A stretch of DNA of 64,000 bases from Streptomyces mobaraensis NBRC 13819 = DSM 40847 (GTDB lineage Bacteria; Actinomycetota; Actinomycetes; Streptomycetales; Streptomycetaceae): positions 7,465,501 to 7,529,500 of the forward strand of contig NZ_CP072827.1 of the NCBI RefSeq assembly GCF_017916255.1, read 5' to 3'. The translations under genes and the position numbers were made by a program. Shown piece by piece: positions 9,001-60,540 of this stretch. The notes under the pieces were generated by a model that saw only the letters and a program-made list of their open reading frames with translations, was not told where the DNA came from and did not search any database. How positions within the stretch are numbered: position 1 is the stretch's first letter; each line of letters opens with the position of its first letter.

Positions 9001-12000
9001 GGTGGCCTCCGGCCTGCCCGGTGCCGCGCTGGCGTGGGGCTTGTGGGGCGAAGTGGGGGGTATGGGCGGTGGTCTGTCGGAGGGTGACCGTGCCCGGATG
9101 GCTCGTGGCGGTGTGCTGCCGTTGTCGACGGACGAGGGCTTGCGGCTGCTCGGGGTCGGAGCTCGTGCGGATGCCGCTCTGGTGCCGGTGCGTCTGGACG
9201 TGGAGGCGCTGCGGGCACAGGGTCCGTCCCTCCCCACCCTCTACCACCACCTCGTCCCCGCCGTCCGCCGCACCGCGGCCGTCAGCGACGGCGGCACCGC
9301 AGACACCCTGCACCGGCAGCTGTCCGCGCTGCCGCCGGCCGAGCGGGAACGCGCCCTCCTCGCCGTCGTGCGCGGAGAGGTGGCCGCCGTCCTGGGACAC
9401 GCCAACCCCGCGGCCATCGCGCCGGACCGGGCCTTCAACGACCTGGGCTTCGACTCGCTGACCGCCGTCGAACTGCGCAACAGCCTCAACACCGCGACCG
9501 GCCTGCGGCTCCCGGCCACGCTGGTCTTCGACTACCCGACCGCCGGCGACCTCGCGCGCCACCTCCACGACGAACTCCTCGGCACGCTCGACACGCCCAC
9601 CGGCACGCCGGCCGTCCAGGAGAGCGCCCACGGCGACGACCCGATCGTCATCGTCGGCATGGCCTGCCGCTACCCGGGCGGCATCGCGTCCCCCGAGGAC
9701 CTGTGGCGCTTGGTCGCCGACGGCCGCGACTCCGTCTCCGCGTTCCCCGACGACCGCGGCTGGGACATCGACGCGCTCTTCGACCCGGACGCCGAACGCC
9801 CGGACACCACCTACGTCGACAAGGGCGGCTTCCTGCACGACGCCGCCGACTTCGACGCGGACTTCTTCCGGATCAGCCCGAACGAGGCGCTGAGCACCGA
9901 CCCGCAGCAGCGGCTGCTGCTGGAGGTCTCCTGGGAGGCGTTCGAGCGGGCCGGGATCGACCCCGCGACCGTCAAGGGCAGCAGGACCGGCGTCTTCGCC
10001 GGCGTCATGTACCACGACTACCCCACCAGCCACAGCGCGGGCAGTATCGTCTCCGGGCGCATCGCCTACACCTACGGCCTGGAGGGCCCGGCGGTGACGG
10101 TGGACACCGCCTGCTCGTCCTCCCTCGTCGCCCTGCACCTGGCCGGCCAGGCGCTGCGCAACGGCGACTGCTCGCTCGCCCTGGTCGGCGGCGTGACCGT
10201 GATGGCCACCCCGGCCACCTTCATCGAGTTCAGCCGCCAGCGCGGCCTGGCGCGCGACGGCCGGTGCAAGTCCTTCGCCGACGCGGCGGACGGCACCGGC
10301 TGGTCCGAAGGCGTGGGCGTGCTCGTGGTGGAGCGGCTGTCGGACGCGCGCCGCAACGGGCACACGGTGCTGGCGGTCGTACGGGGCTCGGCCGTCAACC
10401 AGGACGGCGCCAGCAACGGACTGACCGCCCCCAACGGCCCCTCCCAGCAGCGCGTCATCCGCGCGGCGCTCGCCAACGCGCGGCTGTCGGCGGACGACGT
10501 GGACGCGGTGGAGGCGCACGGCACCGGCACGGTGCTGGGCGACCCGATCGAGGCCCAGGCGCTCCTCGCGACGTACGGCCGCGACCGCGCTCCGGAACAG
10601 CCGCTCTGGCTCGGCTCCATCAAGTCCAACCTGGGCCACACCCAGGCGGCGGCGGGCGTCGCCGGGATCATCAAGATGGTCATGGCGATGCGCAACGGCG
10701 TCCTGCCGAAAACGCTGCACGTGGACGCGCCGTCGTCGAAGGTGGACTGGACGGCCGGCGCGGTGGAACTCCTCACCGAAGCCCGGCCGTGGGAGTCCCG
10801 GGGCGTCAGGCGCGCGGCGGTGTCGTCCTTCGGCATCAGCGGCACCAACGCCCACGTCATCATCGAACAAGCCGCCCCCGAGCCCGTCCCCGCGGACCGG
10901 GAAGAGGACAACCTCCCGACGCCACTCTGGCCCGTGTCCGCCGCGACCGCCGACGCCCTGAAGGCCCAGGCGGCAGGGCTGCTGGACCTGCTGGAGCGTG
11001 AGGACGCACCGGAGCCGGGGGAGGTGGCGGCGGCGCTGGCGACGACGCGGGCGCAGCTCGAACACCGCGCGGTCCTCACGGGTGTCAACCGGGCGGATGT
11101 CATCGCCGGGCTCGCCGCGCTGGCCGCTGGGCAGGACGCGGCGGGTCTGGTGCGCGGGACGGCCGCCGAGGGGCGGCTGGCGTTCCTGTTCACCGGACAA
11201 GGCGCACAACGGCTTGGGATGGGCCGGGAGCTGTATGAAGCCTTCCCGGTGTTCGCGGAGGCACTGGACGAGGTGTGCGCGCATCTCGACGAGCCGTTGA
11301 AGGACGTCCTCTTCGGGGAGGACGTCGATCTGCTGAATCGTACGGAGTACGCGCAGCCCGCGCTGTTCGCCATCGAGACGGCGTTGTTCCGGCTGGTGGA
11401 GTCCTGGGGTGTGCGGCCGGAGGTGCTGGCCGGGCACTCCATCGGGGAGATCGCGGCAGCGCACGTCGCTGGGGTGCTGTCGTTGGCGGACGCGTGCGCG
11501 CTGGTGGCCGCACGCGGCCGGCTGATGCAAGCCCTGCCCGACGGCGGTGTCATGGCTGCTCTCCAGGCCACCGAAGCCGAAGCTCTCACCCTGCTCGGTG
11601 ACGCCAAGGACGCGGCCATCGCCGCGATCAACGGTCCGCGCGCGGTCGTCGTATCGGGCGCCGGAGCAACGGTCACAGCGATCGTGGAGAAGCTGCGGGA
11701 GCAGGGCCGCAAGACCTCGATGCTGAAGGTGTCGCACGCCTTCCACTCGCCGCTGATGGAGCCGATGCTGGAGGACTTCCGCGCGGTCGTCGCGGGCCTG
11801 TCTTTCACCGAGCCCCGCATCCCCATCGTCTCCACCGTCACCGGACTGCTTGCGTTGGCTGAGGAGTTGACGAGCGTGGAGTACTGGGTGGAGCACGTCC
11901 GCCGCCCGGTCCGCTTCGCCGACGCCATCACCACCCTCACCACCGACGGCATCACCACTTTCCTGGAGATCGGCCCGGACGCCGTCCTCACCGCCATGGC

Positions 12001-15000
12001 CGCCGACCACACCACCGCCACCTGCGTGCCCCTCCAACGCCGCAACCGCCCCGAGGAGTCGGAGGCCCTCACCGCCCTCGCCCACCTGTGGACCCACGGC
12101 CACCCCATCGACTGGCAAACCCTCCACCCCGCGACCTCCACCAGCCGGGTCGACCTGCCCACCTACCCCTTCCAACGCCGCCGCTACTGGATCGACGGCT
12201 ACTCCCCGTTCGGCGCGGCGTCCGGTGCCGCCGGTCATCCGCTGCTGGGGAAGCCGGTGTCGCTGGCGGGTTCGGACGGGCTGCTGTTCTCCGGCCGGTT
12301 CTCCCTCCGTACGCACCCCTGGCTCGCCGACCACGCGATCGGCGACACCGTCCTGTTCCCCGGCACGGGCTTCGTGGACCTGGCGGTCGCGGCCGGTGAC
12401 CAGGTGGGATGCGCGGTCCTGTCGGACCTGACCCTGGAGGCGCCACTGGTTCTCCCCGAGCAGGGGGACGTGCACGTGCAACTCGTGGTCGAGGCTCCCG
12501 ACGCCTCGGGAGACCGCACCTTCAGCATTCACTCCCGTTCCGAGGACACGCTGGGCGACGGCGTCTGGGTGCGGCACGCGAGCGGTGTCCTGGGCGCGGC
12601 GGGCCGCGGTGAGGGTTCCGTTCTCGGCACCTGGCCGCCGGCGGGCGCGGAGCCGGTGGCGGTCGAGGGTCTGTACGAGCGGTACGCCGAGGGCGGTCTC
12701 GTCTACGGGCCGGTGTTCCAGGGGCTGCGGGCCGCCTGGCGGTCGGGTGACGAGGTGTTCGCCGAGGTGGCGCTGGAGGACGGCGTGAGCGTCGACGGGT
12801 TCGGCCTGCATCCGGCCGTGCTGGACGCCGCCCTGCACGCGGTGGGTCTGACGGGCGTGGGGGAGCGGGCCGGACTGCCCTTCGCCTGGTCCGGTGTGGA
12901 ACTGCACGCGACAGGGGCGACGGCCCTGCGCGTACGGGTGTCTCCGCGGGGCGAGGGCGCGGTGGCGTTGGAGGCGGCCGACGGCACTGGCCGGCCGGTG
13001 GTGTCCGTGGAACGGCTGGACATACGGCCGATCTCCGCGGAGCAACTGGCCCAGGCCCGCGCCGAGTACCACGACTCCCTCTATCGCGTCGACTGGACCC
13101 CGGTCCCGTCACCGGCCCGCGTCCCCGCCGGGACGTGGACGGTGGTCGGCCCGGAGGCGTCCGCCTGGACACGGGTGCTGGCCGCGGCCGACGGGGTCGC
13201 GAGCGTCGAGGCGGCCCCCGTGCTCCCGGACGCCGGCGCGGCGGACGTCGTCGTGCTGCCGGCCGGGACCGAGGACGCCGGCGGCGACGCGGCCGGTGCG
13301 GCACGCGAGCGTACCCACCGGGTGCTCGCCGACCTCCAGTCCTGGCTCGCGGACGAGCGGTTCGCCGGCTCGACGCTCGTCGTCGTCACCCGGGGTGCTG
13401 CACCGGCGGGCACCACCGAGGTCACCGACCTCGCGGGCGCCGCGGTGGGCGGGCTGGTGCGGTCGGCCCAGGCGGAGAACCCCGGCCGGATCGTGCTCGT
13501 CGACACCGACGGTACCGACGCGTCCCTCGCGTCGCTGCCCCGCGCGCTGGCGGCCGGCGAGGAGTATCTCGCCGTCCGAGAAGGCGAGTTGTCCGTCCCC
13601 CGGCTGGCCCGGGTGCCCGCGACCGTACGGACCGCCGACGCCGACGAGGTCCGTGAGACCCGCGACGGCCACGGCACGATCCTCGTCACGGGTGCCACCG
13701 GCGCCCTGGGCGCGCTGGTCGCCCGCCACCTGGTGGCCGAGCACGGGGCACGACACCTCCTGCTGGCCAGCCGCCGGGGCCCCGACGCCCCGGGCGCCCA
13801 GGAACTGGGGGCGGAACTGGCGGAGTCGGGCGCTGAGGTGACGTTCGCCGCCTGCGACATCGCCGACCGCGACCGGCTGGCGGCGCTCCTGGACTCCGTA
13901 CCCGCCGAGCACCCGCTGACCGCGGTGGTGCACGTCGCCGGCGCGCTGGACGACGGCGTCATCGGCTCGCTGACACCCGACCGCATGGACACCGTCCTCC
14001 GGCCCAAGGCCGACGCGGCCTGGAACCTGCACGAGCTGACGCGCGGCCTCGACCTGTCCGCGTTCGTCCTCTTCTCCTCCGTCGCCGGCGCCCTGGGCGT
14101 ACCGGGACAGGGCAACTACGCGGCAGCCAACGCCTTCCTGGACGCCCTGGCACACCACCGCCGGGCGGCGGGACTGCCGGCGACCTCGCTGGCGTGGGGC
14201 ATGTGGGCGGACGACAGCGGCATGGCCGGCGGGCTGAGCGACGCGGACGTACGGCGCATGGCGCGCTCGGGCGCCGGCGCGCTCTCCGCCAAGGAGGGAC
14301 TGGCGCTGTTCGACGCGGCGTTCACCGGCAGCGGGCGGTTCGCGGCCCCGGACGAGGCACTGCTCGTCCCGGTCGCGCTGGACCTCCGTCTCCTGGCGCA
14401 GGGCGATCCCGGAGAGCTGCCGCCCCTCTTCCGCGGCCTGGTCCGGACGACCGCACGGCGCACCGCGCGGTCGGCCCAGGAGCCGTCCGCCGGCACCGGG
14501 GACCTGCTCGCCCGCCTGGCGGCGACGCCCGCGGCGGAACGCCGCGACCTGCTGACGGAGGTGGTCCGGGCGCAGGTCGTGGCGGTGCTCGGGCACACCG
14601 ACGCGGACGGCGTCGACGCCGACCGGTCGTTCAACGCCCTGGGCTTCGACTCGTTGACCGCCGTCGAGTTCCGCAACCGCCTCAACGCCGCCACCGGCCT
14701 GCGGCTCCCCGCCGCGCTCACCTTCGACCACCCCAGCAGCCGGGCCGTCGCCGACCACCTGTGGGACGAGCTCGCGCCCCGGCTGGAGGAGGAACCCGCG
14801 GCGGACGGGAGCGGTCCGGGTTCGGCCGAGGACCGCGTCCGCGCGGCGCTCGCCGCCATCCCGCTCTCCCGGCTGCGGGAAGCCGGCCTGATGGACAGCC
14901 TCCTGGAGCTCGCCGGGCTCGACGCCGACGTCCTCACCGCCGGCCAGGAGGCGGACGGAGCCGCGCACTCCATCGACGCGATGGACACCGACGCCCTGAT

Positions 15001-15181
15001 CAGCATGGCCCTCGCCGACACGGGCGCGGCGCGGGACGGCGGCGCGGTGGACGGGGCCGAGGACGACCACGAGTACGACGCCTACGACGTCTTCGGGGAC
15101 CACCCGGAGGGGGACGCGGGCACGGGCCACCAGGACGTCGACGCCTTCGACGACGTCACGGACATGACGCGGGAGAAGTGA
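2..15181 (+). CDS. Type I modular polyketide synthase, 5' truncated by window edge: (KS)-AT-DH*-KR-ACP / KS-AT-DH-KR-ACP / KS-AT-DH-KR-ACP
   Basis: The frame is open from base 2, giving 5059 visible residues; the true start lies left of the window. Domains, numbered from base 2: partial KS 1-176; AT1 ~283-590; DH1 ~643-917; KR1 ~1113-1320; ACP1 with phosphopantetheine Ser1429; KS2 1484-1897 (Cys1646 in DTACSSS); AT2 ~2006-2300; DH2 with His2415; KR2 ~2837-3040; ACP2 Ser3152; KS3 3214-3623 (Cys3371); AT3 ~3725-4000; DH3 with His4111; KR3 ~4559-4770; ACP3 Ser4884; C-terminal docking region from ~4938. All ATs have GHSIGE and HAFH, the malonyl-CoA signature. All KRs have the LDD motif of B-type ketoreductases plus the Ser/Tyr/Asn active-site set. 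DH1 has LADR where the family has LxxH (Arg677), so it is probably inactive. No ER is present. Domain calls rest on family motifs; the product is not identified. Confidence 0.97.
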
Positions 15182-43507: not shown

Positions 43508-44500
43508 TCAGCGCGGGCCGTCGGCGGCCCGGGCCGGCGCCGACGGCGGCCGGTGCGACGCGCTGTGGAAGGCCCGGCGGTAGGCGCTGGGAGTGGTGCC
43601 CAGGGCGCCGAGGAAGCGCCTGCGCAGGTTGGTCGCGGACGACAGCCCGGTACGGCGGGCGACGGCGTCCACCGCCAGGTCCGAGGTCTCCAGCAGCTCG
43701 CGGGCCGCGGCGATCCGCCGGGCGAGCAGCCACTGCCCCGGACTGACGCCGAGCTGCTCGGTGAAGCGGCGGGCGAGGGTGCGCGTGGAGCAGCCGGCCC
43801 GGGCCGCCAGCCGGTCGAGCGTCAGCGGCTCGTGCAGCCGGGCCGCGGCCCAGTCCAGCAGCGGCGCGAGCGAACTGTCGATCTGCGCGGGGTGCGGCGG
43901 GGCGGCGTACTGCAGCTGCCCGCCCTCGCGGTGCGGCGGCATCACCATGTTCCGGGCGACCCGCGCCGCGTAACCGGCACCGTGGTCGGCGCGCACCAGG
44001 TGCAGGCACAGGTCGATCCCGGCACCGGAGCCCGCGCTGGTCGCGATGTCGCCGTGGTCCACGTACAGCACGTCCCGTTCGAGGCGCACGGCGGGGAACC
44101 GCGCGGCGAACTCCTCGGCCTGCGCCCAGTGGGTGGTCGCCGAACGGCCGTCCAGGAGCCCCGCGTACGCCAGGGCGAAGGCGCCGGAACAGATGCTGAC
44201 CACGCGCGCCCCCCGCTCGTGCGCCCGGCGTATGGCCCGCACGACGGCGTCCGACGGAGGTTCCGCGAGGGGCAGCCAGCCCGGGACGACCACGGTGTCG
44301 GCCCGGTCGAGGGCGTCGAGCCCCTCGGTGACGACCATGTCGTACCCGGCGAGCGTGGGGACGGGACCGGGCCGCTCGGCGCACACGCCGAAGCGGTACC
44401 GGACCGGCAGGCCGCGTCGCGTGACGCCGAACACATCGGCGGCGCAGGCGAGTTCGAAGGTCGACTGAGGCGCGTGGACGAGTGCCGCTACACGGTGCAT
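43508..44500 (-). CDS. GlxA-family regulator: DJ-1/PfpI-like domain plus AraC helix-turn-helix
   Basis: The protein has 330 residues. Residues ~3-175 form a class I glutamine amidotransferase-like domain, with VVSICSGAFALAYAGLLDGR at the nucleophile-elbow position and TTHWAQAEEFAARFP after it, typical of GlxA/FtrA. Residues ~225-315 carry the AraC double helix-turn-helix (LDRLAARAGCSTRTLARRF and VARRTGLSSATNLRRRF). It diverges from a cupin gene 70 bp away, which it probably regulates. The ligand is unknown. Confidence 0.92.
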   Translation of the reverse strand: MHRVAALVHAPQSTFELACAADVFGVTRRGLPVRYRFGVCAERPGPVPTLAGYDMVVTEGLDALDRADTVVVPGWLPLAEPPSDAVVRAIRRAHERGARVVSICSGAFALAYAGLLDGRSATTHWAQAEEFAARFPAVRLERDVLYVDHGDIATSAGSGAGIDLCLHLVRADHGAGYAARVARNMVMPPHREGGQLQYAAPPHPAQIDSSLAPLLDWAAARLHEPLTLDRLAARAGCSTRTLARRFTEQLGVSPGQWLLARRIAAARELLETSDLAVDAVARRTGLSSATNLRRRFLGALGTTPSAYRRAFHSASHRPPSAPARAADGPR

Positions 44501-44570
44501 GGCAGGAAAGTACCTCAGGACGTCAAACGAGACACTGGGCGGGGCGCGGGGAACAGGTGAGGCTTGCCCC

Positions 44571-44966
44571 ATGACGAACACGACACAGCCGACCACGGAC
44601 ACCACGCACACCACGCACTCCACGGACGCCGCGGCGCCCGCGGGCGGGCAGGTGCCCGGCTACGCGTGGGCCGCCGTACAGGACGCCCCGGCCCGCACCC
44701 TCTTCCCCGGCATCCGGCTGCGCTCGCTGTGGAGCGGGGAGAACGGCGCGACGGCGCACGTGGTGGAGATGGACCCCGGCGCGTGCTGGGAGGGCATCGA
44801 CGTCCACGAACCGGGCCCGGAGGAGGTGTTCGTGGTCTCCGGCGTCTTCAACGACGGCGAGCGCGACTACCCCGCGGGCACCTTCCTCCACGCCCCCGCC
44901 GGCTCCTCCCACATCCCGCAGACGACGACGGGCTGCACCATCTTCGTCTTCTACCCGGAGGGCTAG
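44571..44966 (+). CDS. Small cupin-domain protein (ChrR-like cupin)
   Basis: The protein has 131 residues. The N-terminal 30 are Thr-rich and disordered. The cupin barrel shows VHEPGPEEVFVVSGVFNDGE (metal-binding His/Glu cluster) and YPAGTFLHAPAGSSHIP with the second His, followed by the closing strand CTIFVFYPEG. The role may be metal-dependent sensing or a small dioxygenase/isomerase activity. It is divergently paired with a GlxA-type regulator. Confidence 0.85.
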   Translation: MTNTTQPTTDTTHTTHSTDAAAPAGGQVPGYAWAAVQDAPARTLFPGIRLRSLWSGENGATAHVVEMDPGACWEGIDVHEPGPEEVFVVSGVFNDGERDYPAGTFLHAPAGSSHIPQTTTGCTIFVFYPEG

Positions 44967-48607: not shown

Positions 48608-49682
<1,075 letters not shown>

Positions 49683-49687
49683 TCACC

Positions 49688-50986
49688 ATGAGACGGACGA
49701 ACACCGGCAAGGCGAGACGGCCGCTGGCGCGCGGGGGCCTGGTCCTCGCGGCGGCGGCCCTGATGGCGGGGGCGGCGCTGCCGGCCCACGCGGAACCGCG
49801 GGCCGACGACGTCGTCCAAGTGGACCTCGGACTCGACGGCGCGCAGCCCGACAACTGGTCCGAGGCCCGCGGGATGAGCGCCGACGGCCGGTACGCCGTC
49901 TTCACCTCCCTGGCGTCCAACCTCGTCCAGGGCGACACCAACCGCCTGTACGACGTCTTCGTCCGCGACCTGCGCACCGGGCGGACGGAACGGGTCAGCC
50001 TCGCCGACGACGGCGCGCAGCTCGACGGGTCCACGAGTCAGGCGGCCATCAGCGGCGACGGCCGGTACGTGGCGTTCGCGTCCGACGCGGCCGACGTCCT
50101 GCCGGGGCTGCCCGCCAACGGCGGCTACCGGGTCTTCGTCCGGGACCGCCGGACCGGGCACACCGAACTCGTCAGCGCCGACGGGAGCGCCGCGAGCCCC
50201 ACCATCAGCGCGGACGGCCGGTACGTCGCGTACACCCTCGACGGGCGGGACATCCATGTCACCGACCGCTGGAAGGGGACCACCCGGCTGGTCACGGCGG
50301 GCGCGGACGGCTCCCGGGCCGACAACTCCTCCGCCGACCCGGTGATCAGCGCGGACGGCACCACGATCGGCTTCCGCTCCCGGGCCACCAACCTGCTGCC
50401 GCGCGACCAGGCCCCCACCGCCGCCCCCGCCGCCCCCACCGGCTCCAAGCCGCCGCGCCCGCGCCCCACGTTCCCGTTCTACGTGTACGACGCGCGCACC
50501 GGCCGCATCCAGGGCGCCTCCGTCGACCCGGCCGGCATGCTGCGCGACGCGCACCCGTACGTCAATCTGAGCCCCGACGGGCGGTACGCCACGTTCCGCG
50601 TCTTCGAGCCCAACGGGACGGACGAGGAGGGCTCGCACGTCGAGCTCTACCTCCGCGACCTGCGGCACGGCACCACCACGAAGGCGGCCCTCCCGCTGCC
50701 GGGCACCCGGACCGTGCACGACGCCTACCGCGGCAGCGTGACGGCCGACGGACGATGGCTGCTGTTCGCCTCGGGCGCCGACAACCTGGTGCCCGGCGAC
50801 ACCAACCAGGCCGTGGACCTCTTCCGGCGCGACCTGCGGACCGGCCGGATCGAGCGGATCGGCCCGGCCGGCGGCGCCACGGACATCTCCTGGACCCCCA
50901 ACTCCCTCTCCGTGGACGGCCCCGGCACCACCGCCCTCTTCGACGGCGGCGGCAAGGTGTACGCCCGCCGGCTCCCGCCCGCCTGA
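49688..50986 (+). CDS. Secreted TolB-like/PD40 beta-propeller protein
   Basis: The protein has 432 residues; GGAGGACGG lies 8 bp before the ATG. Residues 1-35 are a Sec or TAT-like signal (RRPLARG, hydrophobic core, PAHAEP). Repeats of SADGRYAVFTSLASNLVQGD, GDGRYVAFASDAADVL, ADGRYVAYTL, ADGTTIGFRSRATNLL, PDGRYATFRV and ADGRWLLFASGADNLVPGD mark six to seven PD40 blades. DVFVRDLRTGRTERVS recurs between them. Such propellers are binding scaffolds. The ligand is unknown, and no protease or hydrolase domain is attached. Confidence 0.88.
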   Translation: MRRTNTGKARRPLARGGLVLAAAALMAGAALPAHAEPRADDVVQVDLGLDGAQPDNWSEARGMSADGRYAVFTSLASNLVQGDTNRLYDVFVRDLRTGRTERVSLADDGAQLDGSTSQAAISGDGRYVAFASDAADVLPGLPANGGYRVFVRDRRTGHTELVSADGSAASPTISADGRYVAYTLDGRDIHVTDRWKGTTRLVTAGADGSRADNSSADPVISADGTTIGFRSRATNLLPRDQAPTAAPAAPTGSKPPRPRPTFPFYVYDARTGRIQGASVDPAGMLRDAHPYVNLSPDGRYATFRVFEPNGTDEEGSHVELYLRDLRHGTTTKAALPLPGTRTVHDAYRGSVTADGRWLLFASGADNLVPGDTNQAVDLFRRDLRTGRIERIGPAGGATDISWTPNSLSVDGPGTTALFDGGGKVYARRLPPA

Positions 50987-51008: not shown

Positions 51009-51065
51009 GGCCGGGGCGGGGCGGAGCGCGATGCCGGTACGGCCGCGCTCCACCCCGCCCCGGCC
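51009..51065. terminator. Large hairpin after the beta-propeller gene
   Basis: 22-bp arms with one mismatch (beginning GGCCGGGGCGGGG and ending CCCCGCCCCGGCC) enclose a 13-base loop, starting 22 bp after the stop. It insulates the operon that starts at 51395. The sequence from 51066 to 51394 holds no gene; it becomes AT-richer near 51280-51330, a likely promoter zone. Confidence 0.8.
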
Positions 51066-51394: not shown

Positions 51395-51880
51395 ATGCTG
51401 CCCGCCATGCCGCACGACGCCCGCGAACGATTCCTTGCCGCCCCGCACATCGGCGTCCTGGGCGTCACCGATCCCCGGGGCGGCGACCGGGCACCCCTGG
51501 TGGTGCCCGTCTGGTACGCGTACGAGCCGGGCGGCGAAGTGGTCGTCGAGACGGGCCGGGAGACGGTCAAGGCCCGACTGCTGCGCGCCGCCGGGCGGTT
51601 CAGCCTCTGCGTGCAGGACGAACGGCGGCCGTACCGCTACGTCAGCGTCGAGGGGCCGGTCACCGCGGTCGAGGACCCCGTCGACCCGGCCGTGCGCGAG
51701 GCCCTGGCCCACCGCTACCTCGACCCCGACGAGGCCCGCGACTACCTGGCGGCCACGGCGGCCCAGCTGAAGGACGACGTCGTCTTCCGCATGCGCCCGG
51801 AGCGCTGGCGCACCGCCGACTTCGCCGCCTTCGCGGCCGACTTCGCCGGCACCTCGGCGGAGACCCCGGCCGCCGGCTGA
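51395..51880 (+). CDS. Pyridoxamine 5'-phosphate oxidase-like (split-barrel flavin/F420) protein
   Basis: The protein has 161 residues; GAGGAG lies 4 bp before the ATG (a second ATG is four codons on). It opens MPHDARERFLAAPHIGVLGV, with PLVVPVWYAYEPGGEVVVET and TVKARLLRAAGRFSLCVQDE, the strand-loop-strand flavin-phosphate site of the PNPOx-like/FDOR superfamily. PYRYVSVEGPVTAV is the conserved fourth strand. It binds FMN or F420 and would reduce or oxidise a small molecule. It precedes an NRPS-like reductase and two P450s with the same orientation, so it is probably part of that pathway, though a 170-bp gap separates it. Confidence 0.88.
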   Translation: MLPAMPHDARERFLAAPHIGVLGVTDPRGGDRAPLVVPVWYAYEPGGEVVVETGRETVKARLLRAAGRFSLCVQDERRPYRYVSVEGPVTAVEDPVDPAVREALAHRYLDPDEARDYLAATAAQLKDDVVFRMRPERWRTADFAAFAADFAGTSAETPAAG

Positions 51881-52051
51881 CCGCCGCCGCACACCCGAAA
51901 AGCCGCACAACCGAAAAGGCGCACCGCACGCCGCGCCCCGGAAGCGCGAGCACCGGACCGCGCGCGACAGCGCCGAGCCCGCGTACCCCGCAGAGCCGAC
52001 GCACCGCGCCACCGCACCCCAGCACAACCCGGAAGGACACCGCACCCGCAC

Positions 52052-55000
52052 ATGACCCACACCGACGTCTCCTTACGCCCCCACCCGCGCACCCGGCCCA
52101 CGGCGGACACCGCGCCCCCGCCCGGCTACCCGCGGGACCGGCTCGTAGCCGAGCTGTTCACGGCGCAGGCGGCCGCCCGCCCGGACGCCCTCGCCGCCCG
52201 GCACGGGGAGCGCACCCTCACCTACGGCCGGCTCGACGCCCGTTCCGACGCCCTGGCGGCGCGCCTGCGCTCGCACGGCGTCGAGCCGGGCGACCTGGTG
52301 GGCGTCTGCGGTGGTCGTTCCCTCGAAGCGCTGGTCGCGCTGCTGGGCATCCTCAAGGCCGGCTGCGCGTACGTCCCGCTGGACCAGGACCTGCCGCCGG
52401 CCCGGCTGCGGGCCATGGCGGAGGACGCGGGGCTGCGCGCCGCCGTCACCCTGCCCGGCGGCGAACGCCCGGTGCGCGGACTGCGCGTGACCATCGGCCT
52501 CGACGAGGACGACGCGACCACCGCCGCCCCCGTCGGCCCCCGCGCCCCCTCCCGCACCGCGGCCCCGACCGACCCCGCCTACGTGGCCTTCACCTCCGGC
52601 ACCACCGGCCGCCCCAAACCGGTCGCCATACCGCACCGCGGCGTCGTCCGCCTCGTGCTCTCCGACCCCGAACTGCCGCCGCCCGGACCGGACGACCGCG
52701 TCCTGCACGCCTACGGGCTGTCCTCCGACGCCTCGACGATAGAGATCTGGGGCGCGCTGCTCACCGGGGCGTGCCTGGTCATCGCCGACCGCGCCGAACT
52801 CCTCTCGCCCACCGCCCTGGAGGAGTTGCTGCGCACCCGGCGGGTCACGGTCGCGTACCTGACGACCAGCGTCTTCCACCTCCTCGCCCGGACCCGGCCC
52901 GAGGCCCTGGCGGGGCTGCGGTTCGTGTCGGCCGGCGGCGAGGCGATGGACCCGCGCCTGGCCAACGCCGTGCTGGCGGCCTGCCCCGGCACCACCGTCG
53001 TCAACTTCTACGGCCCGACCGAGAACGCGGTGGTCTCCACCGCCCATGTGCTGCGCCCGCTGCCCGACGACGCCGGGCACGTGCCCCTCGGCCGCCCCTT
53101 CGGCGCCTCCACCTGCCACGTCGTGCGCCCGGACGGCACCCCGGCGGCGCCCGGCGAGGAGGGCGAGCTGTACGTCGGCGGGGACGGGCTGGCCCTCGGC
53201 TACCTCGGCGACGCGGCGCTGACCGCCGAGCGGTTCGTCACCCTGCCCGCCGTGGAACCGGGCGGGCGGCTGTACCGGACCGGCGACCGGGCGGTCCTGA
53301 CCGCCGACGGCCTGCTGGAGTACCACGGCCGGCTGGACCGGCAGGTGAAGCTGCGCGGCGTCCGCGTCGAACTCGACGAGGTCGAGGCCCGGCTGCGGGC
53401 CAACCCGGCGGTCGGCGAGGCCGTCGTCGAGGCCGAGGACGGCGCGCTCACGGCGTACGTCACCCCCGCCGAGGCCGGGCACCCGGTGCCCGTGCCGGAC
53501 CTGCGCGCCTACTGCGCGCAGTGGCTGCCCGCGCAGGCCGTCCCGGCGCTCGTGCCGCTGGAACGGTTCCCGGTGACCAGCGGCGGCAAGGTGGACCGCG
53601 CCCGGCTGAAGGCCGCGGCCCCCGCCCCCGAACCGGCGGGGGAGGAACCCGCGGCGGAGGACGGCCTGCTCGGCGTCCTCGCGGAGGTGTGGCAGCAGGT
53701 CCTGCGCGTCCGGCCCGCCCCCCACGACCGGTTCTTCGACCTCGGCGGCGACTCCCTGCTCGCCTCCGAGACCGTCACCCGCACCCTCGCCGTCCTGGGC
53801 CTGGACGCCGCCCACGGCTCGGGCCTCGTCAGGGCGCTGCTGGCCGCCCCCACCCTGGAAGGCTTCGCCGCGGCCGTCCGCGAGGCACGCCACGGCACCG
53901 CCGGAACGGCCGCGCCGCCCGCCGACTTCGTCAAGGAGGCCGAGCTCGGCTTCGACCTCCCGCCCGCCACCGGCCCGGCCCCGCGCCCCCACGACCCGCG
54001 GCACGTGCTGCTCACCGGCGCCTCCGGGTTCGTCGGCGCCTTCCTCCTCGACCGGCTGCTGCGCACCACGCGGGCACGCGTCCACTGCCCGGTACGGGCG
54101 ACGGGCCCGGCCCACGCCGAACGGCGGGTGCGCACCGCGCTCGCCCGCTACGGGCTGCACCCGGACGAGGCCGCGTGGCAGCGGGTGGAGTGCTTCCCCG
54201 GCGACCTGACCCAGCCCGCCCTCGGCCTGTCCGACGCGCGCACGGCCGACCTCTCCCGCACCCTGGACCTCGTCGTCCACAACGGCGCCCACGTCAACTT
54301 CCTCTACCCCTATGAGGAGTTGCGCGCGGCCAACGTCGACGGCACCCGGGAGGTCGTCCGCATCGCCGCGCCCCGCCGCGTCCCCGTGCACTTCGTCTCC
54401 ACCGTCGCCGTCGTCGCCGGCTTCGGCGCGGCCGGGGTGCGCGAGGTGGACGAGGACCTGCCGTTGGACCACGCCGACGCCCTGACCATGGGCTACGCGG
54501 AGAGCAAGTGGGTCGCCGAGGGCGTGCTGCGGCAGGCCGCCGACCAGGGACTCCCGGTCGCCGTCCACCGGCCGTACGAGGTCACGGGCGACACGGCGCG
54601 CGGCGTGTGCAACACCGAGACGGCCATCTGCTCGCTGCTGAAGATGATCGCCGACACGGGCCTGGCCCCGGACATCGCGCTGCCCATGGACTTCGTCCCG
54701 GTGGACCACCTCGCCGCGGCCCTCGTCCACATCGCCACCCACCAGCAGGCCGACGGCCGCGTCTACCACCTCACCAACCCGCGCCCGGCGATGCTCTCGG
54801 ACGTCCTGGACCGGATGCGCGCCGCCGGCCACACCCTGCGCACGCTGCCCTACGACGAGTGGGTCGCCGCCCTCGTCCGCCACGTCGCCGCGCACCCCAC
54901 GGCCGCCACGGCCCCGTTCGTGTCGCTGTGCGTCGACCGCGGCCGCACGACGGACCGGTCCGTCAAGGAGATGTACCTCCAGGACACCTTCCCCGTGCTG

Positions 55001-55150
55001 GGGCGGCGCAACACCGAGGCGGCGCTGGCCGGCAGCGGGCTCGACTGCCCGCCGGTCGACGCCGCCCTGCTCGACCGCTACCTGGAGTACTTCCACACCT
55101 CCGGCTACCTCACCCGCCCCGCGACCAGTCCCTCGGAGGGGACCGCATGA
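52052..55150 (+). CDS. NRPS-like single-module enzyme: adenylation - carrier protein - thioester reductase
   Basis: The protein has 1032 residues. The adenylation domain (~25-520) shows FTSGTTGRPKPV (~180), SSDASTIEIWGALLTG with the Asp that binds an amino-acid amine, NFYGPTENAVV, YRTGD (~407) and the A10 Lys in SGGKVDR (~511). The carrier domain has Ser568 in DLGGDSLLA. The reductase (~645-1015) begins LLTGASGFVGAF (NADPH loop) and has the YAESK catalytic pair Tyr815/Lys819 after HFVSTVAVV. There is no condensation domain. It should activate one amino or carboxylic acid, hold it as a thioester, and release it reductively as an aldehyde or alcohol. The first P450 overlaps it by 4 bp (ATGA), so the two are coupled. 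Substrate not identified. Confidence 0.95.
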   Translation: MTHTDVSLRPHPRTRPTADTAPPPGYPRDRLVAELFTAQAAARPDALAARHGERTLTYGRLDARSDALAARLRSHGVEPGDLVGVCGGRSLEALVALLGILKAGCAYVPLDQDLPPARLRAMAEDAGLRAAVTLPGGERPVRGLRVTIGLDEDDATTAAPVGPRAPSRTAAPTDPAYVAFTSGTTGRPKPVAIPHRGVVRLVLSDPELPPPGPDDRVLHAYGLSSDASTIEIWGALLTGACLVIADRAELLSPTALEELLRTRRVTVAYLTTSVFHLLARTRPEALAGLRFVSAGGEAMDPRLANAVLAACPGTTVVNFYGPTENAVVSTAHVLRPLPDDAGHVPLGRPFGASTCHVVRPDGTPAAPGEEGELYVGGDGLALGYLGDAALTAERFVTLPAVEPGGRLYRTGDRAVLTADGLLEYHGRLDRQVKLRGVRVELDEVEARLRANPAVGEAVVEAEDGALTAYVTPAEAGHPVPVPDLRAYCAQWLPAQAVPALVPLERFPVTSGGKVDRARLKAAAPAPEPAGEEPAAEDGLLGVLAEVWQQVLRVRPAPHDRFFDLGGDSLLASETVTRTLAVLGLDAAHGSGLVRALLAAPTLEGFAAAVREARHGTAGTAAPPADFVKEAELGFDLPPATGPAPRPHDPRHVLLTGASGFVGAFLLDRLLRTTRARVHCPVRATGPAHAERRVRTALARYGLHPDEAAWQRVECFPGDLTQPALGLSDARTADLSRTLDLVVHNGAHVNFLYPYEELRAANVDGTREVVRIAAPRRVPVHFVSTVAVVAGFGAAGVREVDEDLPLDHADALTMGYAESKWVAEGVLRQAADQGLPVAVHRPYEVTGDTARGVCNTETAICSLLKMIADTGLAPDIALPMDFVPVDHLAAALVHIATHQQADGRVYHLTNPRPAMLSDVLDRMRAAGHTLRTLPYDEWVAALVRHVAAHPTAATAPFVSLCVDRGRTTDRSVKEMYLQDTFPVLGRRNTEAALAGSGLDCPPVDAALLDRYLEYFHTSGYLTRPATSPSEGTA

Positions 55151-56376
55151 GCGACACCGAAGCCGTGGACCCCACCGGCACCGTCATCGACGTCCCCGCC
55201 CCCGAGCCCGGCAGCGCCGGATCGCCGTGCGGCTACGCCCGGCTGCGCGCCGAACAGCCCGTCGTCAAGGCGAAGCTGCCCAACGGCGAGACGGGCTGGC
55301 TCCTCAGCCGCTACGAGGACGTGCGCGCCGCCTTCGCCGACCCCCGGCTCGTCCGGCCGCTGCTGTCGGCCTGGCCGCCCCGCGAGGGCGCCGACGCCCC
55401 GCCGCCGTGCCTGCCCACCTTCCTGGAGATGACCGGCGAGCACCACGAGCGCGTCCGCCGTACCGTCCTCCCGCTGTTCGGCCGCCGCAGGCTGGAGTTC
55501 ATGGTCCCGCGCGTCCGGGCCATCGCCGAGGAGCTCCTCGACGCCATGGTCGCCGGGGCGCCGGACGGCACGGCCGACCTCGTCCCCGCCTACGTCGAAC
55601 CGCTCCCGCTGCGGGTGCTGTGCGAGACCGTCGGACTGCCGTACGAGGAGCGCGACGTCTACCTGCCGCACACCCTCGCCCTGCTCGGCGCCTCCGGGCT
55701 GACGATGGAGGAGGTGCTGGCCGCGCTGTACGCCCTCCAGGACTACGCCTCCGAGCTCATCGCCCGCAGGGAGCGGGCGGGGGAGGGCGAGGACTACCTC
55801 GGTCTGCTGCTGGCGGAGAGCCGCCGGGCGGGTGCCACCCTGACGCGCGACGACGTCGTCAGCTTCGTCGTCACCATGCTCATGGCCGGCTACAAGACCA
55901 ACATCCAGCACACCGGCAACGCCATGCTCGTCCTCCTCGACCACCCCGACGAGCTGCGGAGGCTCCGCGAGGAGCCCGCGCGCATCGGCGCCGCCGTGGA
56001 GGAACTGCTGCGCTACGTACCGCTGATGAACGCGATCAACATCCTCGTCGCCCGGGAGGACTTCACCCTGCACGGGCAGCGCATCCGGGCCGGCGACGCG
56101 GTCGTGCCCGTCCCGGCGTCGGCCAACCGCGACCCCGCGGCGTTCACCGACCCCGACCGGCTCGACCTGACCCGCTCGCCCAACGCCCACGTGGCCTTCG
56201 GGCACGGCCCGCACGCCTGCACCGGCGGCCACCTGACCCGGCTCCAGCTCACCACCGCCATCGAGGTGCTGCTCGAGCGGCTGCCCGGCGTCGAACTGGC
56301 CGAACCGGCCGCCTCGCTCCCCTGGGACGAGACGACCCCGCTGCGCGCCCCGGCCCGGCTGCCGGTGCGCTGGTGA
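55147..56376 (+). CDS. Cytochrome P450 with non-canonical I-helix (AGYKTN)
   Basis: The protein has 409 residues and starts inside the stop of the NRPS-like gene (ATGA). The haem loop is FGHGPHACTGG with ligand Cys358. The K-helix ExxR is in EELLR, and the N-terminal HERVRR (C-helix) is typical of bacterial class I enzymes. The I-helix, normally AGxET(T/S), reads AGYKTN: the acid is Lys250, Thr251 remains and Asn follows. This should alter proton delivery to bound dioxygen. It needs a ferredoxin partner not seen here. Likely substrate: the carrier-bound or released product of the upstream enzyme. Confidence 0.94.
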   Translation: MSDTEAVDPTGTVIDVPAPEPGSAGSPCGYARLRAEQPVVKAKLPNGETGWLLSRYEDVRAAFADPRLVRPLLSAWPPREGADAPPPCLPTFLEMTGEHHERVRRTVLPLFGRRRLEFMVPRVRAIAEELLDAMVAGAPDGTADLVPAYVEPLPLRVLCETVGLPYEERDVYLPHTLALLGASGLTMEEVLAALYALQDYASELIARRERAGEGEDYLGLLLAESRRAGATLTRDDVVSFVVTMLMAGYKTNIQHTGNAMLVLLDHPDELRRLREEPARIGAAVEELLRYVPLMNAINILVAREDFTLHGQRIRAGDAVVPVPASANRDPAAFTDPDRLDLTRSPNAHVAFGHGPHACTGGHLTRLQLTTAIEVLLERLPGVELAEPAASLPWDETTPLRAPARLPVRW

Positions 56377-56414
56377 CGCCCGTACCGCCCGCCGACGAGA
56401 GAGGCCCATACCCC

Positions 56415-57641
56415 GTGACCACACCGCACACCCCCACGGCCGCCGGCGGCCCGTCCGAGGAGCCGCTGCCGCGCTACCCGTTCAGCACCAAAGGCGACCG
56501 GCTCGCCCCCGAACTCGCCGAACTGCGCGGTCGCTGCCCGGTGGCCCGCGTCGGCACCAACTCCGGTGGCGAGGCGTGGCTCGTCACCGGCTACGACCTC
56601 ACCCGGCACGTGCTGCGCGACCGGGCCTTCGCCCGCTCCGTACTGGGCGAGGCCGACAGCCCGGCGCAGGACGCCCCCATCCTGGCGCCCGAACTGCTGG
56701 ACGCCATGAACCACCTCAAGAAGGCCGGCCTGCGCGACGAGGTGCTCAAGGCCCTCGGCCGCGACCAGCCCGAGCTGCCCGACGCCTGGGTCGCCGAAGC
56801 GACCCGCGAGGGCCTGGACGCCATGGTCCGCGAGGGCGCGCCGGGCGACCTCCAGAAGCACTTCGCCGAACACGTCGCCGCCCGCTGCATGCTGCGCCTG
56901 CTCGGGCTGCCCTTCGAGGACCGCGCGTACCTGGCCCCCCGCGCCGACGCCGACCTGACGATGGTCACGTACTCGGACGAGGAACTCGCCCGCAACTGGG
57001 AGGAGATCCGCCGGCACATGGACGCGCACATGGCCGCCCGCCGCCCGGGCGAGCCGCGCGGCCTGGCCGACCGCCTCGCCGACCTCAACGCCCGCCACCA
57101 GGGACTGACGGGCCGGCAGCTGTCCAACATCGTCGCCGTCCTCTTCGTCAGCGGCTACGAGGACTTCGCGAGCTTCCTGGGCGTGGCGGCGTTCAACCTC
57201 CTCCAGCGGCCCGAAGCGCTCAAGACCCTGCGGGAGCGGCCCGAGACGACACCCCAGTGCGTGGAGGAACTGCTGCGCTACAGCGTCGTCCTGGGCAACG
57301 CGATCCCGCGCTACGTCACCCGGGACACCGAACTCGGCCCGGCGTCCCTCAAACAGGGCGACCTCGTCCTGCTCTCCCTGGACGCCGTCAACTTCGACCC
57401 GGCCGCCTTCACCGCCCCCGAGACCTTCGACCCGTCCCGCTCGCCCAACCCCCACCTCCGCTTCGGCTACGGCCGCCACCACTGCCCGGGCGCCCACCTG
57501 GTCCGCCGCCACTCCGACACGGCGTTCCGCGTCCTCGTCGACCACCTCCCGGACCTCCGCCCCGCGGTTCCGGCGACCGAGGTCCCCTGGCACCCCCACC
57601 GGATGGCGATCATGCCGGCGGAGATCCTCGTCACCTGGTGA
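56415..57641 (+). CDS. Cytochrome P450 lacking the conserved I-helix threonine (SGYEDF)
   Basis: From GTG 56415 the protein has 408 residues, with GAGAGG about 11 bp upstream. An in-frame GTG at 56373 overlaps the preceding stop (GTGA) and is an alternative coupled start. The haem loop is FGYGRHHCPGAHL with Cys357, and ExxR lies in EELLRYS. The I-helix reads SGYEDF: the acid (Glu249) is kept, but the oxygen-activating Thr is replaced by Asp250. The N-terminal part is PLPRYPFSTKGDRLAPELAE, close to antibiotic-tailoring P450s. It is the last gene of the operon; a strong hairpin follows. Confidence 0.94.
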   Translation: MTTPHTPTAAGGPSEEPLPRYPFSTKGDRLAPELAELRGRCPVARVGTNSGGEAWLVTGYDLTRHVLRDRAFARSVLGEADSPAQDAPILAPELLDAMNHLKKAGLRDEVLKALGRDQPELPDAWVAEATREGLDAMVREGAPGDLQKHFAEHVAARCMLRLLGLPFEDRAYLAPRADADLTMVTYSDEELARNWEEIRRHMDAHMAARRPGEPRGLADRLADLNARHQGLTGRQLSNIVAVLFVSGYEDFASFLGVAAFNLLQRPEALKTLRERPETTPQCVEELLRYSVVLGNAIPRYVTRDTELGPASLKQGDLVLLSLDAVNFDPAAFTAPETFDPSRSPNPHLRFGYGRHHCPGAHLVRRHSDTAFRVLVDHLPDLRPAVPATEVPWHPHRMAIMPAEILVTW

Positions 57642-57660
57642 GAACGGGACACCGGTGCGC

Positions 57661-57700
57661 CGGGGCTGACCCCCTGCCCCCGGGCAGGGGGTCAGCCCCG
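57661..57700. terminator. 40-bp near-perfect palindrome ending the P450 operon
   Basis: 19-bp perfect arms (57661-57679 and 57682-57700) start 19 bp after the P450 stop. The right arm contains the stop codon of a minus-strand gene end, so it served as a shared terminator for convergent genes. Confidence 0.9.
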
Positions 57701-57793
57701 GTCGAACACGTTGGGCCGGCCGAACTCGTACCGGGCCTGGGCCTGCCGGTGGAACGGTTCGAGTTCCGGAGGGCGCGACGAGGACCGGCCCCG
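57692..57793 (-). pseudogene. C-terminal tail of a gene cut off near the IS110 element
   Basis: The minus strand reads PPELEPFHRQAQARYEFG then RPNVFDRG and a stop that falls within the bidirectional hairpin. Upstream the frame hits a stop (TAA, 57794-57796) within 34 codons. The residue mix and the terminator position look like a genuine protein end whose body was lost when the IS arrived. Too short to name. Confidence 0.4.
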
Positions 57794-57799
57794 TTACCT

Positions 57800-58061
57800 T
57801 TTCCGTGGCCCCGCAACGGGGCGCCTGGCCCCCGGGCTCGGTATGGCTGTGTGCCCCCTGTCGAAGTACATGACCTGGGGGGTGTTGCCGCCGGGCTTCG
57901 GGGCACCGCTTGACCGCTGATGAGGGGCCTGACGACCACTCTGGTTCGGCGCAATGCCGGACCGCTTCACGGGTGGCATGTCTGCGTAACGTGGTTGCCG
58001 GCGTGTGGTGCCGCAGGGACGGCCGGGAGTTGGGGAGACGAGTGGCGAGGGGCACGCGCAC
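57800..58061 (+). ncRNA. Candidate bridge-RNA region in the IS110 left non-coding end
   Basis: In IS110-group elements the 5' non-coding end is transcribed into a structured bridge RNA that pairs with target and donor DNA. This stretch is non-coding and lies in the right place and length range. I did not work out loops or guides, so the call rests on family knowledge and position. Confidence 0.3.
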
Positions 58062-59276
58062 ATGGTCGACACGACCGCGACAGATCTCTTCCTCGGCCTG
58101 GACCTGGGCAAGGAGTTCCACCACGCCCACGGCCGGACCGGGGACGGCAGGACCGTGCACGACAAGCGGCTGCCCAACACCGAGCCGAAACTGCTGGAGC
58201 TGTTCACCAAGCTGGTGGCGAAGTTCGGTACCGTCCTGGTGATCGTGGACCAGGTCGCCAACATCGGCGCGCTGCCGCTGACGGTGGCCCGCGCGAGCGG
58301 GTGCCGGGTGGCCTACCTGCCGGGACTGTCGATGCGGCGGGCCGCCGACCTGCATCCCGGTGAGGCCAAGACAGACGCCCGCGACGCGTTCGTGATCGCC
58401 GAGACCGCCCGGACCATGCCGCACACCTTGCGCGCGGTGGACCGTGACGACGAGGTACTGGCCGAGCTGACCATGCTCACCGGCTACGACAACGACCTGG
58501 CCGGCGAGGTGAACCGCACCACCAACCGGCTGCGCGGCCTGCTCTCCCAGATCCACCCCTCCCTGGAACGCGTGCTCGGCCCGCGCCTGGCCTACCCCTA
58601 CGTCCAAGCCCTCCTGGCCCGGCACGGCTCCCCGGCGAAGCTGAAGAGACTCGGCCGGGCCCGCTGCGAGGCCCTGCTCAAAGCGCACGGCTCGCGCAAG
58701 GCGAAGCAGCTGGCCGGGGAGATCTCCGACGCGCTGGCCGAGCAGACTCTCGTCGTTCCCGGCACCGAGGCGTCCGCGCTGATCGTTCCGGGCCTGGCCG
58801 CTCAGCTCGCCGCCGCCCACACCCAGCGACAGGCCACCGAGCAGGAGATCGCCGCCCTGCTGGAGGCCCTCCCTCTTTTCCACCTCCTGACGTCCCTGCC
58901 CGGCATGGGCGTCAGGACCACCGCCGCGGTGATCGTCGCGATCGGTGACGGCACCGGCTTCCCCACCGCCGGACACCTCGCCTCCTACGCCGGACTCGCC
59001 CCCGCAACGAAGTCCTCGGGCACCTCCATCCGCGGCGAGCACGCTCCCCACCGCGGCAACCGGCTCCTCAAACGCGCCCTGTTCCAGGCCGCGTTCGCCG
59101 CGACCGGCTGCAAGAGCGACCCGTCCTCGCGGATCTACTACGACCGCCAGCGAACCCGCGGCAAGACTCACACCCAGGCGATCCTCCGCCTGGCCCGGCA
59201 ACGCGTGAACGTCATCCACGCGATGATCCGCAACGGCACCCTCTACGAACCCCGCGCCCTCGACCTCGCTGCCTGA
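58062..59276 (+). CDS. IS110-family transposase (DEDD recombinase)
   Basis: The protein has 404 residues; GAGGGG lies 9 bp before the ATG. The N-terminal RuvC-like DEDD domain starts FLGLDLGKEFHHAH (first Asp), with VDQVANIGALPL and KTDARDAFVIAETAR (last acids). The C-terminal Tnp domain has LTSLPGMGVRTTAAVIVAIG and SYAGLAPATKSSGTSIRGEH, which holds the catalytic Ser, then GNRLLKRALFQAAF. The length is full for the family and there is no frameshift, so the enzyme may be active. It would join DNA guided by a bridge RNA from its own non-coding end. Confidence 0.95.
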   Translation: MVDTTATDLFLGLDLGKEFHHAHGRTGDGRTVHDKRLPNTEPKLLELFTKLVAKFGTVLVIVDQVANIGALPLTVARASGCRVAYLPGLSMRRAADLHPGEAKTDARDAFVIAETARTMPHTLRAVDRDDEVLAELTMLTGYDNDLAGEVNRTTNRLRGLLSQIHPSLERVLGPRLAYPYVQALLARHGSPAKLKRLGRARCEALLKAHGSRKAKQLAGEISDALAEQTLVVPGTEASALIVPGLAAQLAAAHTQRQATEQEIAALLEALPLFHLLTSLPGMGVRTTAAVIVAIGDGTGFPTAGHLASYAGLAPATKSSGTSIRGEHAPHRGNRLLKRALFQAAFAATGCKSDPSSRIYYDRQRTRGKTHTQAILRLARQRVNVIHAMIRNGTLYEPRALDLAA

Positions 59277-59411: not shown

Positions 59412-59550
59412 AAAACCAGCACGAACCCCTACGAACCAGCCCCGCCAGGGTTGACGAAACAGATAGGGGCACCCCCCCGCCCGCGCCATGTCCGGATATG
59501 ACAGAAGCACGTCATTGCGGCCACGCCGCCGCGGCCCGGACGATAGGGGC

Positions 59551-60540
59551 ATGCCCCAGACGCACCACCGCGTTGTGATCGCGGTCTTCCCCGACGTCGA
59601 CCTCCTCGACGTCACCGGCCCGGCCGAGGTGTTCGCCCTGGCCAACCGGGAGAGCGGCGGCCGTGCCGGGTACGAGGTACGGCTGGCCGGCCCCGGCCCG
59701 GCGGGGGAGGCCGTCGCGACCTCGGCGGGGGTGCGCGTGGTGACCGACCTGGGCATGGCCGACGTGGGGGCCGCGGTGGACACCCTGCTCGTCCCCGGCG
59801 CGGTCGACCCCGGGCCCGAGGGCCCGCGGGCCCGGATCGACGACGGCCTGGTGGAATGGATCAAGGCCACCGCGCCCCACGCGCGGCGCGTCGCCTCGGT
59901 GTGCGTGGGCGCGCACCTGCTCGCCGCGGCCGGGGTGCTGGACGGCCGGAGGGCGACCACGCACTGGTCGACCGCCGCGCAACTCGCCGCGGACCACCCG
60001 CGGGTGGACGTCGACGCGGACCCGATCTTCGTCCGCTCGGGGCGGGTGTGGACCGGCGCGGGCATCAGCGCCTGCCTCGACCTGGCCCTCGCCCTGGTCG
60101 CCGAGGACCACGGCGAGGACCTGGCGCTGGCCGTCGCCCGCCAGCTGGTCGTCTACCTCAAACGCCCCGGCGGCCAGAGCCAGTTCAGCGTGCCGATCAG
60201 CCGCCCGGCGTCGTCCCGCAGGGACCTCGACGAGCTGCGCCGGTACATCGGCGAACACCTCGACGAGGACCTGTCGGCGGCCGCCCTGGCGGCGCGGATG
60301 TGCCTGAGCGAACGGCACTTCTCCCGCGTGTTCGCCCAGGAGACCGGCGCCACTCCGGCCGGCTATGTGGAGGCGGCCCGGGTGGAGGCGGCCCGTCGGC
60401 TGCTGGAGACCACCGACCGGCCCCTGGAACACGTCGCCCGGGCCTGCGGCCTGCGGTCGGTGGAGACCCTGCACCGGGCGTTCCGCCGGCAGATCAACAC
60501 CACCCCGGCCGCGTACCGCCGCCGCTTCCGCACCACCTGA
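59551..60540 (+). CDS. GlxA-family regulator: DJ-1/PfpI-like domain plus AraC helix-turn-helix
   Basis: The protein has 329 residues. The N-terminal domain (~5-180) opens HRVVIAVFPDVDLLDVTGPA, with ASVCVGAHLLAAAGVLDGRR at the nucleophile elbow and TTHWSTAAQLAADHP after it. Two AraC helix-turn-helix motifs lie at ~230-325: LAARMCLSERHFSRVFAQ and VARACGLRSVETLHRAF. ATGAC-N8-GTCAT at 59498-59515 is a candidate binding site. A cysteine hydrolase follows 85 bp downstream; GlxA-type regulator and isochorismatase-like hydrolase pairs are common in actinomycetes, so this one probably controls it. Confidence 0.93.
   Translation: MPQTHHRVVIAVFPDVDLLDVTGPAEVFALANRESGGRAGYEVRLAGPGPAGEAVATSAGVRVVTDLGMADVGAAVDTLLVPGAVDPGPEGPRARIDDGLVEWIKATAPHARRVASVCVGAHLLAAAGVLDGRRATTHWSTAAQLAADHPRVDVDADPIFVRSGRVWTGAGISACLDLALALVAEDHGEDLALAVARQLVVYLKRPGGQSQFSVPISRPASSRRDLDELRRYIGEHLDEDLSAAALAARMCLSERHFSRVFAQETGATPAGYVEAARVEAARRLLETTDRPLEHVARACGLRSVETLHRAFRRQINTTPAAYRRRFRTT

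What the first reader, a model, noticed from the sequence alone, without database searches (positions are those of the whole stretch)
51395..57700. Compact operon pairing an A-PCP-reductase with two unusual P450s and a split-barrel oxidoreductase
The sequence shows a condensation-free NRPS-like enzyme, two P450s coupled by short overlaps or gaps, and an FDOR/PNPOx-like protein in front, bracketed by two strong hairpins. From known domain chemistry, one acid is activated, loaded, possibly oxidised while tethered, then released as aldehyde or alcohol. I recognise no named pathway with this exact set, so it may be a new small-molecule system based on a single amino acid.
Basis: partly seen in the sequence, partly recalled or inferred. 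Interest (0 to 1): 0.8.

Follow-up and report, generated by a model that had tools for sequence, protein, structure and literature searches.

The report
Guanipiperazine operon, already characterised in Streptomyces
This four-gene cluster is a Streptomyces copy of the known guanipiperazine pathway, which turns two tyrosines into a piperazine alkaloid, so the finding is real but not new.

Summary
Four co-directional genes lie at 51395-57641: an F420-type split-barrel reductase (FDOR/PPOX), an A-PCP-reductase enzyme (ATR), and two P450s. A strong hairpin lies on each side. The claim that no named pathway has this set is wrong. A noncanonical NRPS, two P450s and an F420H2-dependent PNPOx-like reductase are the guanipiperazine cluster (gup of S. 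chrestomyceticus; rms of S. rimosus ATCC 10970, 6,254 bp). Two L-tyrosines give a dihydropyrazine, which GupA reduces to a piperazine. The window's four proteins are 77-81% identical, in the same order, to the operon of another S. rimosus strain (L032), and the ATR falls in one supported clade with it. The same order occurs in 30 of 71 loci from a named-genome scan with ATR as bait. The A-domain code and the odd I-helix motifs of both P450s are conserved. The hairpins read best as terminators, one for the upstream gene and one for the operon. The less explored part lies outside the window: another 30 of the 71 loci keep FDOR-ATR but lack both P450 orthologues. Novelty: already known; interest low.

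The parts
51395..51880 (+). F420-type FDOR/PPOX reductase, GupA counterpart
   Evidence: PNPOx_N 2.2e-11; TIGR03618 Rv1155_F420 79.9 bits over cut-off 79.05; only PDB relative at E <= 0.001 is 3f7e, at 8.1e-4, an entry that the F420 review lists among F420 FDORs; 79% identical to the S. rimosus L032 copy over residues 1-140
52052..55150 (+). A-PCP-R NRPS-like enzyme, condensation-free
   Evidence: AMP-binding, PP-binding, thioester reductase TIGR01746; A code DAIYVAFVVK; 78% identical to L032 over residues 25-1032; same clade
55147..56376 (+). cytochrome P450 a, ATGA overlap with ATR
   Evidence: PF00067 1.3e-21; I-helix AGYKTN exact in 27 of 30 four-gene loci; 81% identical to L032 over residues 13-409; nearest solved relatives are monooxygenases such as 4z5p and mycinamicin hydroxylase
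56415..57641 (+). cytochrome P450 b, related to PtmB and CYP121
   Evidence: PF00067 6.6e-18; nearest solved relatives PtmB, CYP121 mycocyclosin synthase, GymB1; SGYEDF-type I-helix with YED in 29 of 29 scorable four-gene loci; 77% identical to L032 over residues 4-408
57660..57701 (+). hairpin after the operon, probable terminator without a U tract
   Evidence: 20-nt perfect arms, z -5.6
51009..51065 (+). hairpin downstream of the preceding PD40 beta-propeller gene, probably that gene's terminator and not part of the operon
   Evidence: 22-nt arms, 95% complementary, z -6.4

Best explanation
This is a guanipiperazine-type (gup/rms) cluster. The A domain activates L-tyrosine and loads it on the PCP. 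The R domain releases it as tyrosinal. Two tyrosinals condense to a dihydropyrazine. The F420H2-dependent FDOR reduces that to a piperazine. The two P450s then couple the phenols oxidatively. In published homologues the condensation of two tyrosines to a dihydropyrazine, its reduction by GupA, and the products guanipiperazine A and B are reported; tyrosinal release and the C-O/C-C coupling by the P450s are recalled from the original paper, which I could not read. For this window every chemical step is inferred by orthology. Which P450 performs which coupling is not resolved here.
For: The gene set matches the published description: noncanonical NRPS, two P450s and an F420H2 reductase related to PNPOx, in a 6,254-bp region, against 6,247 bp here. 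Identities to the S. rimosus operon L032 are 79/78/81/77%, in the same order. The A code DAIYVAFVVK equals that of L032 and is the code in 27 of 29 scorable four-gene loci. P450 I-helix and heme motifs equal those of L032. The ATR tree places the window and L032 in one 20-row set of support 98. L092 lies within the cluster that PMC12842786 calls guanipiperazine A/B-like. P450b is nearest by PDB sequence to PtmB and CYP121 mycocyclosin synthase. A CofD gene for F420 biosynthesis is in the same genome, over the family cut-off.
Against: No locus labelled S. chrestomyceticus was among the 71 named loci, so gup itself was not compared, and the original paper is not held. L032 is a different S. rimosus strain from ATCC 10970, and its FDOR-to-P450b span is 6,304 bp, not 6,254; I did not resolve the difference. 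P450a's nearest solved relatives are monooxygenases, with the aryl-coupling CYP158A2 lower in the list, so coupling by P450a rests on the literature. Product and substrate were not measured here. The A code is not one I recognise as a standard tyrosine code. The S. rimosus authors call homologous clusters silent in other Streptomyces.
Confidence: 0.94

Rival explanations
1. The same tyrosinal/piperazine scaffold is made, but the two P450s of this lineage couple it differently, giving a guanipiperazine analogue rather than guanipiperazines A/B.
For: P450 identity to the S. rimosus copies is 77-81%, not near-identical; deeper relatives carry clearly different P450s on the same core.
Against: I-helix and heme motifs of both P450s are identical to those of L032; the window's ATR sits with it in one clade.
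Confidence: 0.05
2. A single-amino-acid system in which the P450s hydroxylate PCP-tethered substrate before aldehyde or alcohol release.
For: A-PCP enzymes with P450s acting on the tethered residue exist (recalled, e.g. novobiocin NovH/NovI); P450a's nearest solved relatives are monooxygenases.
Against: In the characterised homologous cluster the FDOR reduces a dimerised dihydropyrazine; each P450 lacks one half of the usual I-helix acid-threonine pair, which suits phenol coupling more than hydroxylation (inference).
Confidence: 0.01

Closest known systems
gup (guanipiperazine) cluster of S. chrestomyceticus and rms cluster of S. rimosus ATCC 10970
   Same: Same four enzyme types in a compact region of about 6.25 kb; FDOR is an F420H2 dihydropyrazine reductase; two tyrosines. 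Order and 77-81% identity checked against another S. rimosus strain, L032.
   Different: Different species; no product measured here; neither the S. chrestomyceticus nor the ATCC 10970 sequence was compared directly.
Guanipiperazine-like cluster 17 of Streptomonospora nanhaiensis 12A09 (L092)
   Same: FDOR-ATR-P450a-P450b order; annotated guanipiperazine A/B-like.
   Different: P450s only 52-53% identical, ATR 60-61%.
ATRed of Xenorhabdus indica (PMC7586950, passages read)
   Same: A-T-R minimal NRPS; two amino aldehydes make a cyclic Schiff base.
   Different: Phenylalanine is proposed as the main substrate and the product oxidises to a pyrazine; the passages read name one NRPS gene and no FDOR or P450s.
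CYP121 mycocyclosin synthase and PtmB
   Same: Nearest solved sequence relatives of P450b.
   Different: CYP121 acts on a cyclodityrosine diketopiperazine (recalled), not a piperazine from an A-PCP-R enzyme.

Membership tests
guanipiperazine (gup/rms) cluster | Condensation-free A-PCP-R NRPS-like enzyme | tested here: met
guanipiperazine (gup/rms) cluster | F420-type FDOR-B/PNPOx-like reductase in the operon | tested here: met
   TIGR03618 just over cut-off; GupA is FDOR-B. The FDOR-B subgroup itself was not tested by tree.
guanipiperazine (gup/rms) cluster | Two P450s in the same operon | tested here: met
guanipiperazine (gup/rms) cluster | Orthology to a producing species' cluster | tested here: met
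   79/78/81/77% to S. rimosus L032, conserved order, same ATR clade. L032 is another strain of the producing species, not ATCC 10970.
guanipiperazine (gup/rms) cluster | Activation of L-tyrosine | tested here: inconclusive
   A code identical to S. rimosus L032, but no assay and no calibrated predictor
guanipiperazine (gup/rms) cluster | Production of guanipiperazines A/B | not testable with these tools
   needs metabolite data

The most novel reading that the evidence does not exclude
The FDOR-ATR pair is a transferable piperazine-making core with exchangeable tailoring genes: 30 of 71 loci keep FDOR-ATR without orthologues of either P450, some with other P450 pairs, methyltransferases or, in one case, glycosyltransferase-type genes. 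The window's own copy might make a differently coupled analogue; the probability is for that last part.
Probability: 0.06. Interest if true: 0.35.

Novelty: already known. Interest (0 to 1): 0.12.

Why it matters
It closes a lead: the cluster needs no new chemistry to explain it. It adds a Streptomyces copy, about 51 kb from the contig end, of a cluster that a published antiSMASH run did not recognise in S. rimosus. The wider survey shows the FDOR-ATR core with several different tailoring sets, which are better targets for new alkaloids than this window.

Tried and rejected
Considered pyrazine (ATRed-type), cyclodipeptide and tethered-hydroxylation pathways. The PDB was searched by sequence for all four proteins (rows shown 60 of 94, 60 of 370, 60 of 395 and 1 of 1): no row shown is named as a Gup protein. 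Literature searches showed, in listings and abstract starts only, no other named pathway with this gene set; one search listed pyrazines of Lentzea (PMC8658869, listing only), not followed. One search (guanipiperazine, 11 papers) gave the answer; of these I saw passages of PMC8498797, PMC9045324, PMC13098539 and PMC12842786, a reference entry in PMC12081711, and only the listing for the other six. A promoter scan found none; a terminator scan found one site on the other strand, at chance level; the post-operon hairpin lacks a T-run, so that scan misses it. The MxcG NCBIfam hit (599.5 bits, cut-off 2300) was rejected.

Full report
What is there. The window is positions 7465501-7529500 of a 7.57-Mb single-contig genome. 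The operon ends about 51 kb from the contig end. Genes: FDOR 51395-51880, ATR 52052-55150, P450a 55147-56376 and P450b 56415-57641, all on +. Upstream is a PD40 beta-propeller ORF (49589-50986); downstream is an IS110 transposase gene (58005-59276).

Known or not. The F420 review PMC8498797 (passages) describes GupA of S. chrestomyceticus as an F420H2-dependent FDOR-B reductase. It reduces a dihydropyrazine, made from two L-tyrosines, to the piperazine of guanipiperazines A and B, and homologues of the cluster are widespread in Streptomyces. PMC9045324 (passages) reports that S. rimosus ATCC 10970 makes both compounds. It assigns them to the 6,254-bp rms region encoding a noncanonical NRPS, two P450s and an F420H2-dependent reductase related to PNPOx, nearly identical to gup and not recognised by antiSMASH. 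[quoted passage not shown] The original paper (Shi et al. 2021, Chem Sci 12:2925) is not held; the C-O/C-C coupling role of its P450s is recalled, not read.

Relatives. A scan of named genomes returned 71 distinct loci (109 relatives found, the best 80 kept). Of these, 30 of 71 have FDOR, ATR, P450a and P450b in this order, with FDOR identity of at least 60% and P450 identities of at least 48% (the thresholds set). Another 30 of 71 have FDOR-ATR without either P450 orthologue. Two have an FDOR elsewhere in the locus and no P450 orthologue. One (L053) has both P450s and no FDOR, and one (L062) has both P450s but starts at a contig edge. Seven have neither at those thresholds; these include the Myxococcus locus L098, which matches only the A-PCP part. 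Because ATR was the bait and candidates were pattern-selected, these are not population frequencies. Among 60 related genomes, three had an ATR match of 78-79% identity over nearly the whole length. In a survey of the genus, P450b had a match at E <= 1e-80 in 9 of 295 genomes, the window's included, one of them (G281) with an internal TGA; P450a lay beside it in 9 of 9. The surveys overlap in species.

S. rimosus comparison. L032 (S. rimosus NRRL WC-3904) matches at 79% (FDOR), 78% (ATR), 81% (P450a) and 77% (P450b) over the aligned stretches, in the same order. Its FDOR start to P450b stop spans 6,304 bp, 50 bp more than published for ATCC 10970; I did not resolve this. In a tree of 69 ATR rows the window pairs with S. 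huiliensis (L049), and lies with L032 in a 20-row set of support 98: the window, 18 four-gene loci and L031 (quick method, SH-aLRT only, midpoint root, six rows left out).

Substrate and P450s. The A-domain residues, placed by motif against GrsA positions that I recalled, read DAIYVAFVVK. This code is exact in 27 of 29 scorable four-gene loci; L034 and L087 differ at one position, and L044 is frameshifted and unscored. I do not recognise it as a standard tyrosine code, so the tyrosine assignment rests on the gup literature. P450a has AGYKTN exactly in 27 of 30 four-gene loci. P450b has YED in 29 of 29 scorable loci; L040 is cut by its contig end. Each P450 thus lacks one half of the canonical acid-threonine pair (recalled), which fits radical phenol coupling (inference). 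The closest PDB chains to P450b are PtmB, CYP121 and GymB1. Those closest to P450a are a P450 hydroxylase (4z5p), mycinamicin hydroxylase/epoxidase and nocardicin N-oxygenase, with biflaviolin synthase CYP158A2 lower, which does not by itself favour coupling. A CofD homologue is present at 2940741-2941673 of the genome contig, 420.9 bits against a cut-off of 257.45; in 14 control genomes the search rings in 6, over the cut-off in 3.

Hairpins. 57660-57701 and 51009-51065 are real. A perfect stem of at least 9 bp within 150 nt after P450b occurs in 12 of 31 scorable loci with ATR and both P450s, against 2.2% of 500 random sequences of the same length at 72% GC. Position is partly conserved while sequence is not, as expected of terminators; 19 of 31 gave none under that strict rule. 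Upstream stems of at least 10 bp within 450 nt of the FDOR were found in 4 of the 30 such loci that have an FDOR (no chance control), so the upstream hairpin is not a shared feature.

Variants. Four loci (L055, L056, L061, L091) have an extra gene of about 0.8-0.9 kb between ATR and the P450 gene or genes; the three scanned (L055, L056, L061) match methyltransferase domains, and L091 was not scanned. Twelve carry two P450s only 40-45% like P450a. L031 has a GT2 glycosyltransferase and a polysialyltransferase-like gene where the P450s would be. These, not the window, are the less explored part.

Verdict. Ordinary orthologue of a known cluster.

Noticed in passing
L031 13180-15723: In S. albus NRRL B-1811 the FDOR-ATR pair is followed by a GT2 glycosyltransferase gene (overlapping the ATR stop) and a polysialyltransferase-like gene instead of the two P450s.
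   Followed up: partly
L055 13007-13885; L056 13118-13978; L061 5404-6222; L091 13101-14021: An extra gene sits between ATR and the P450 gene(s) in four loci outside Streptomyces; it is methyltransferase-like in the three scanned, which suggests methylated piperazines.
   Followed up: partly
L097 13679-14506: A methyltransferase gene also lies about 0.5 kb after ATR in Streptomyces sp. AJS327, where the FDOR and a P450b-like gene lie upstream of ATR.
   Followed up: no
L060, L063, L066, L067, L073, L080, L081, L085, L086, L089, L093, L095: FDOR-ATR followed by a different P450 pair (I-helices GFGIS and AGYRTS), in neighbouring branches of the ATR tree; probably a distinct product.
   Followed up: partly
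G036:C2:899508-902747: A relative that has the 78% ATR also holds a second ATR-like stretch at 64-66% identity, found as two pieces.
   Followed up: no
window 281-15181: Large type I polyketide synthase ORF of 4966 aa; its first matched domains are the tail of a ketosynthase and an acyltransferase, so the gene probably begins before the window.
   Followed up: no
window 58005-59276: IS110-family transposase gene directly downstream of the operon.
   Followed up: no
window 43508-44623 and 59488-60540: Two AraC-type regulators with DJ-1/PfpI domains, one on either side of the region.
   Followed up: no
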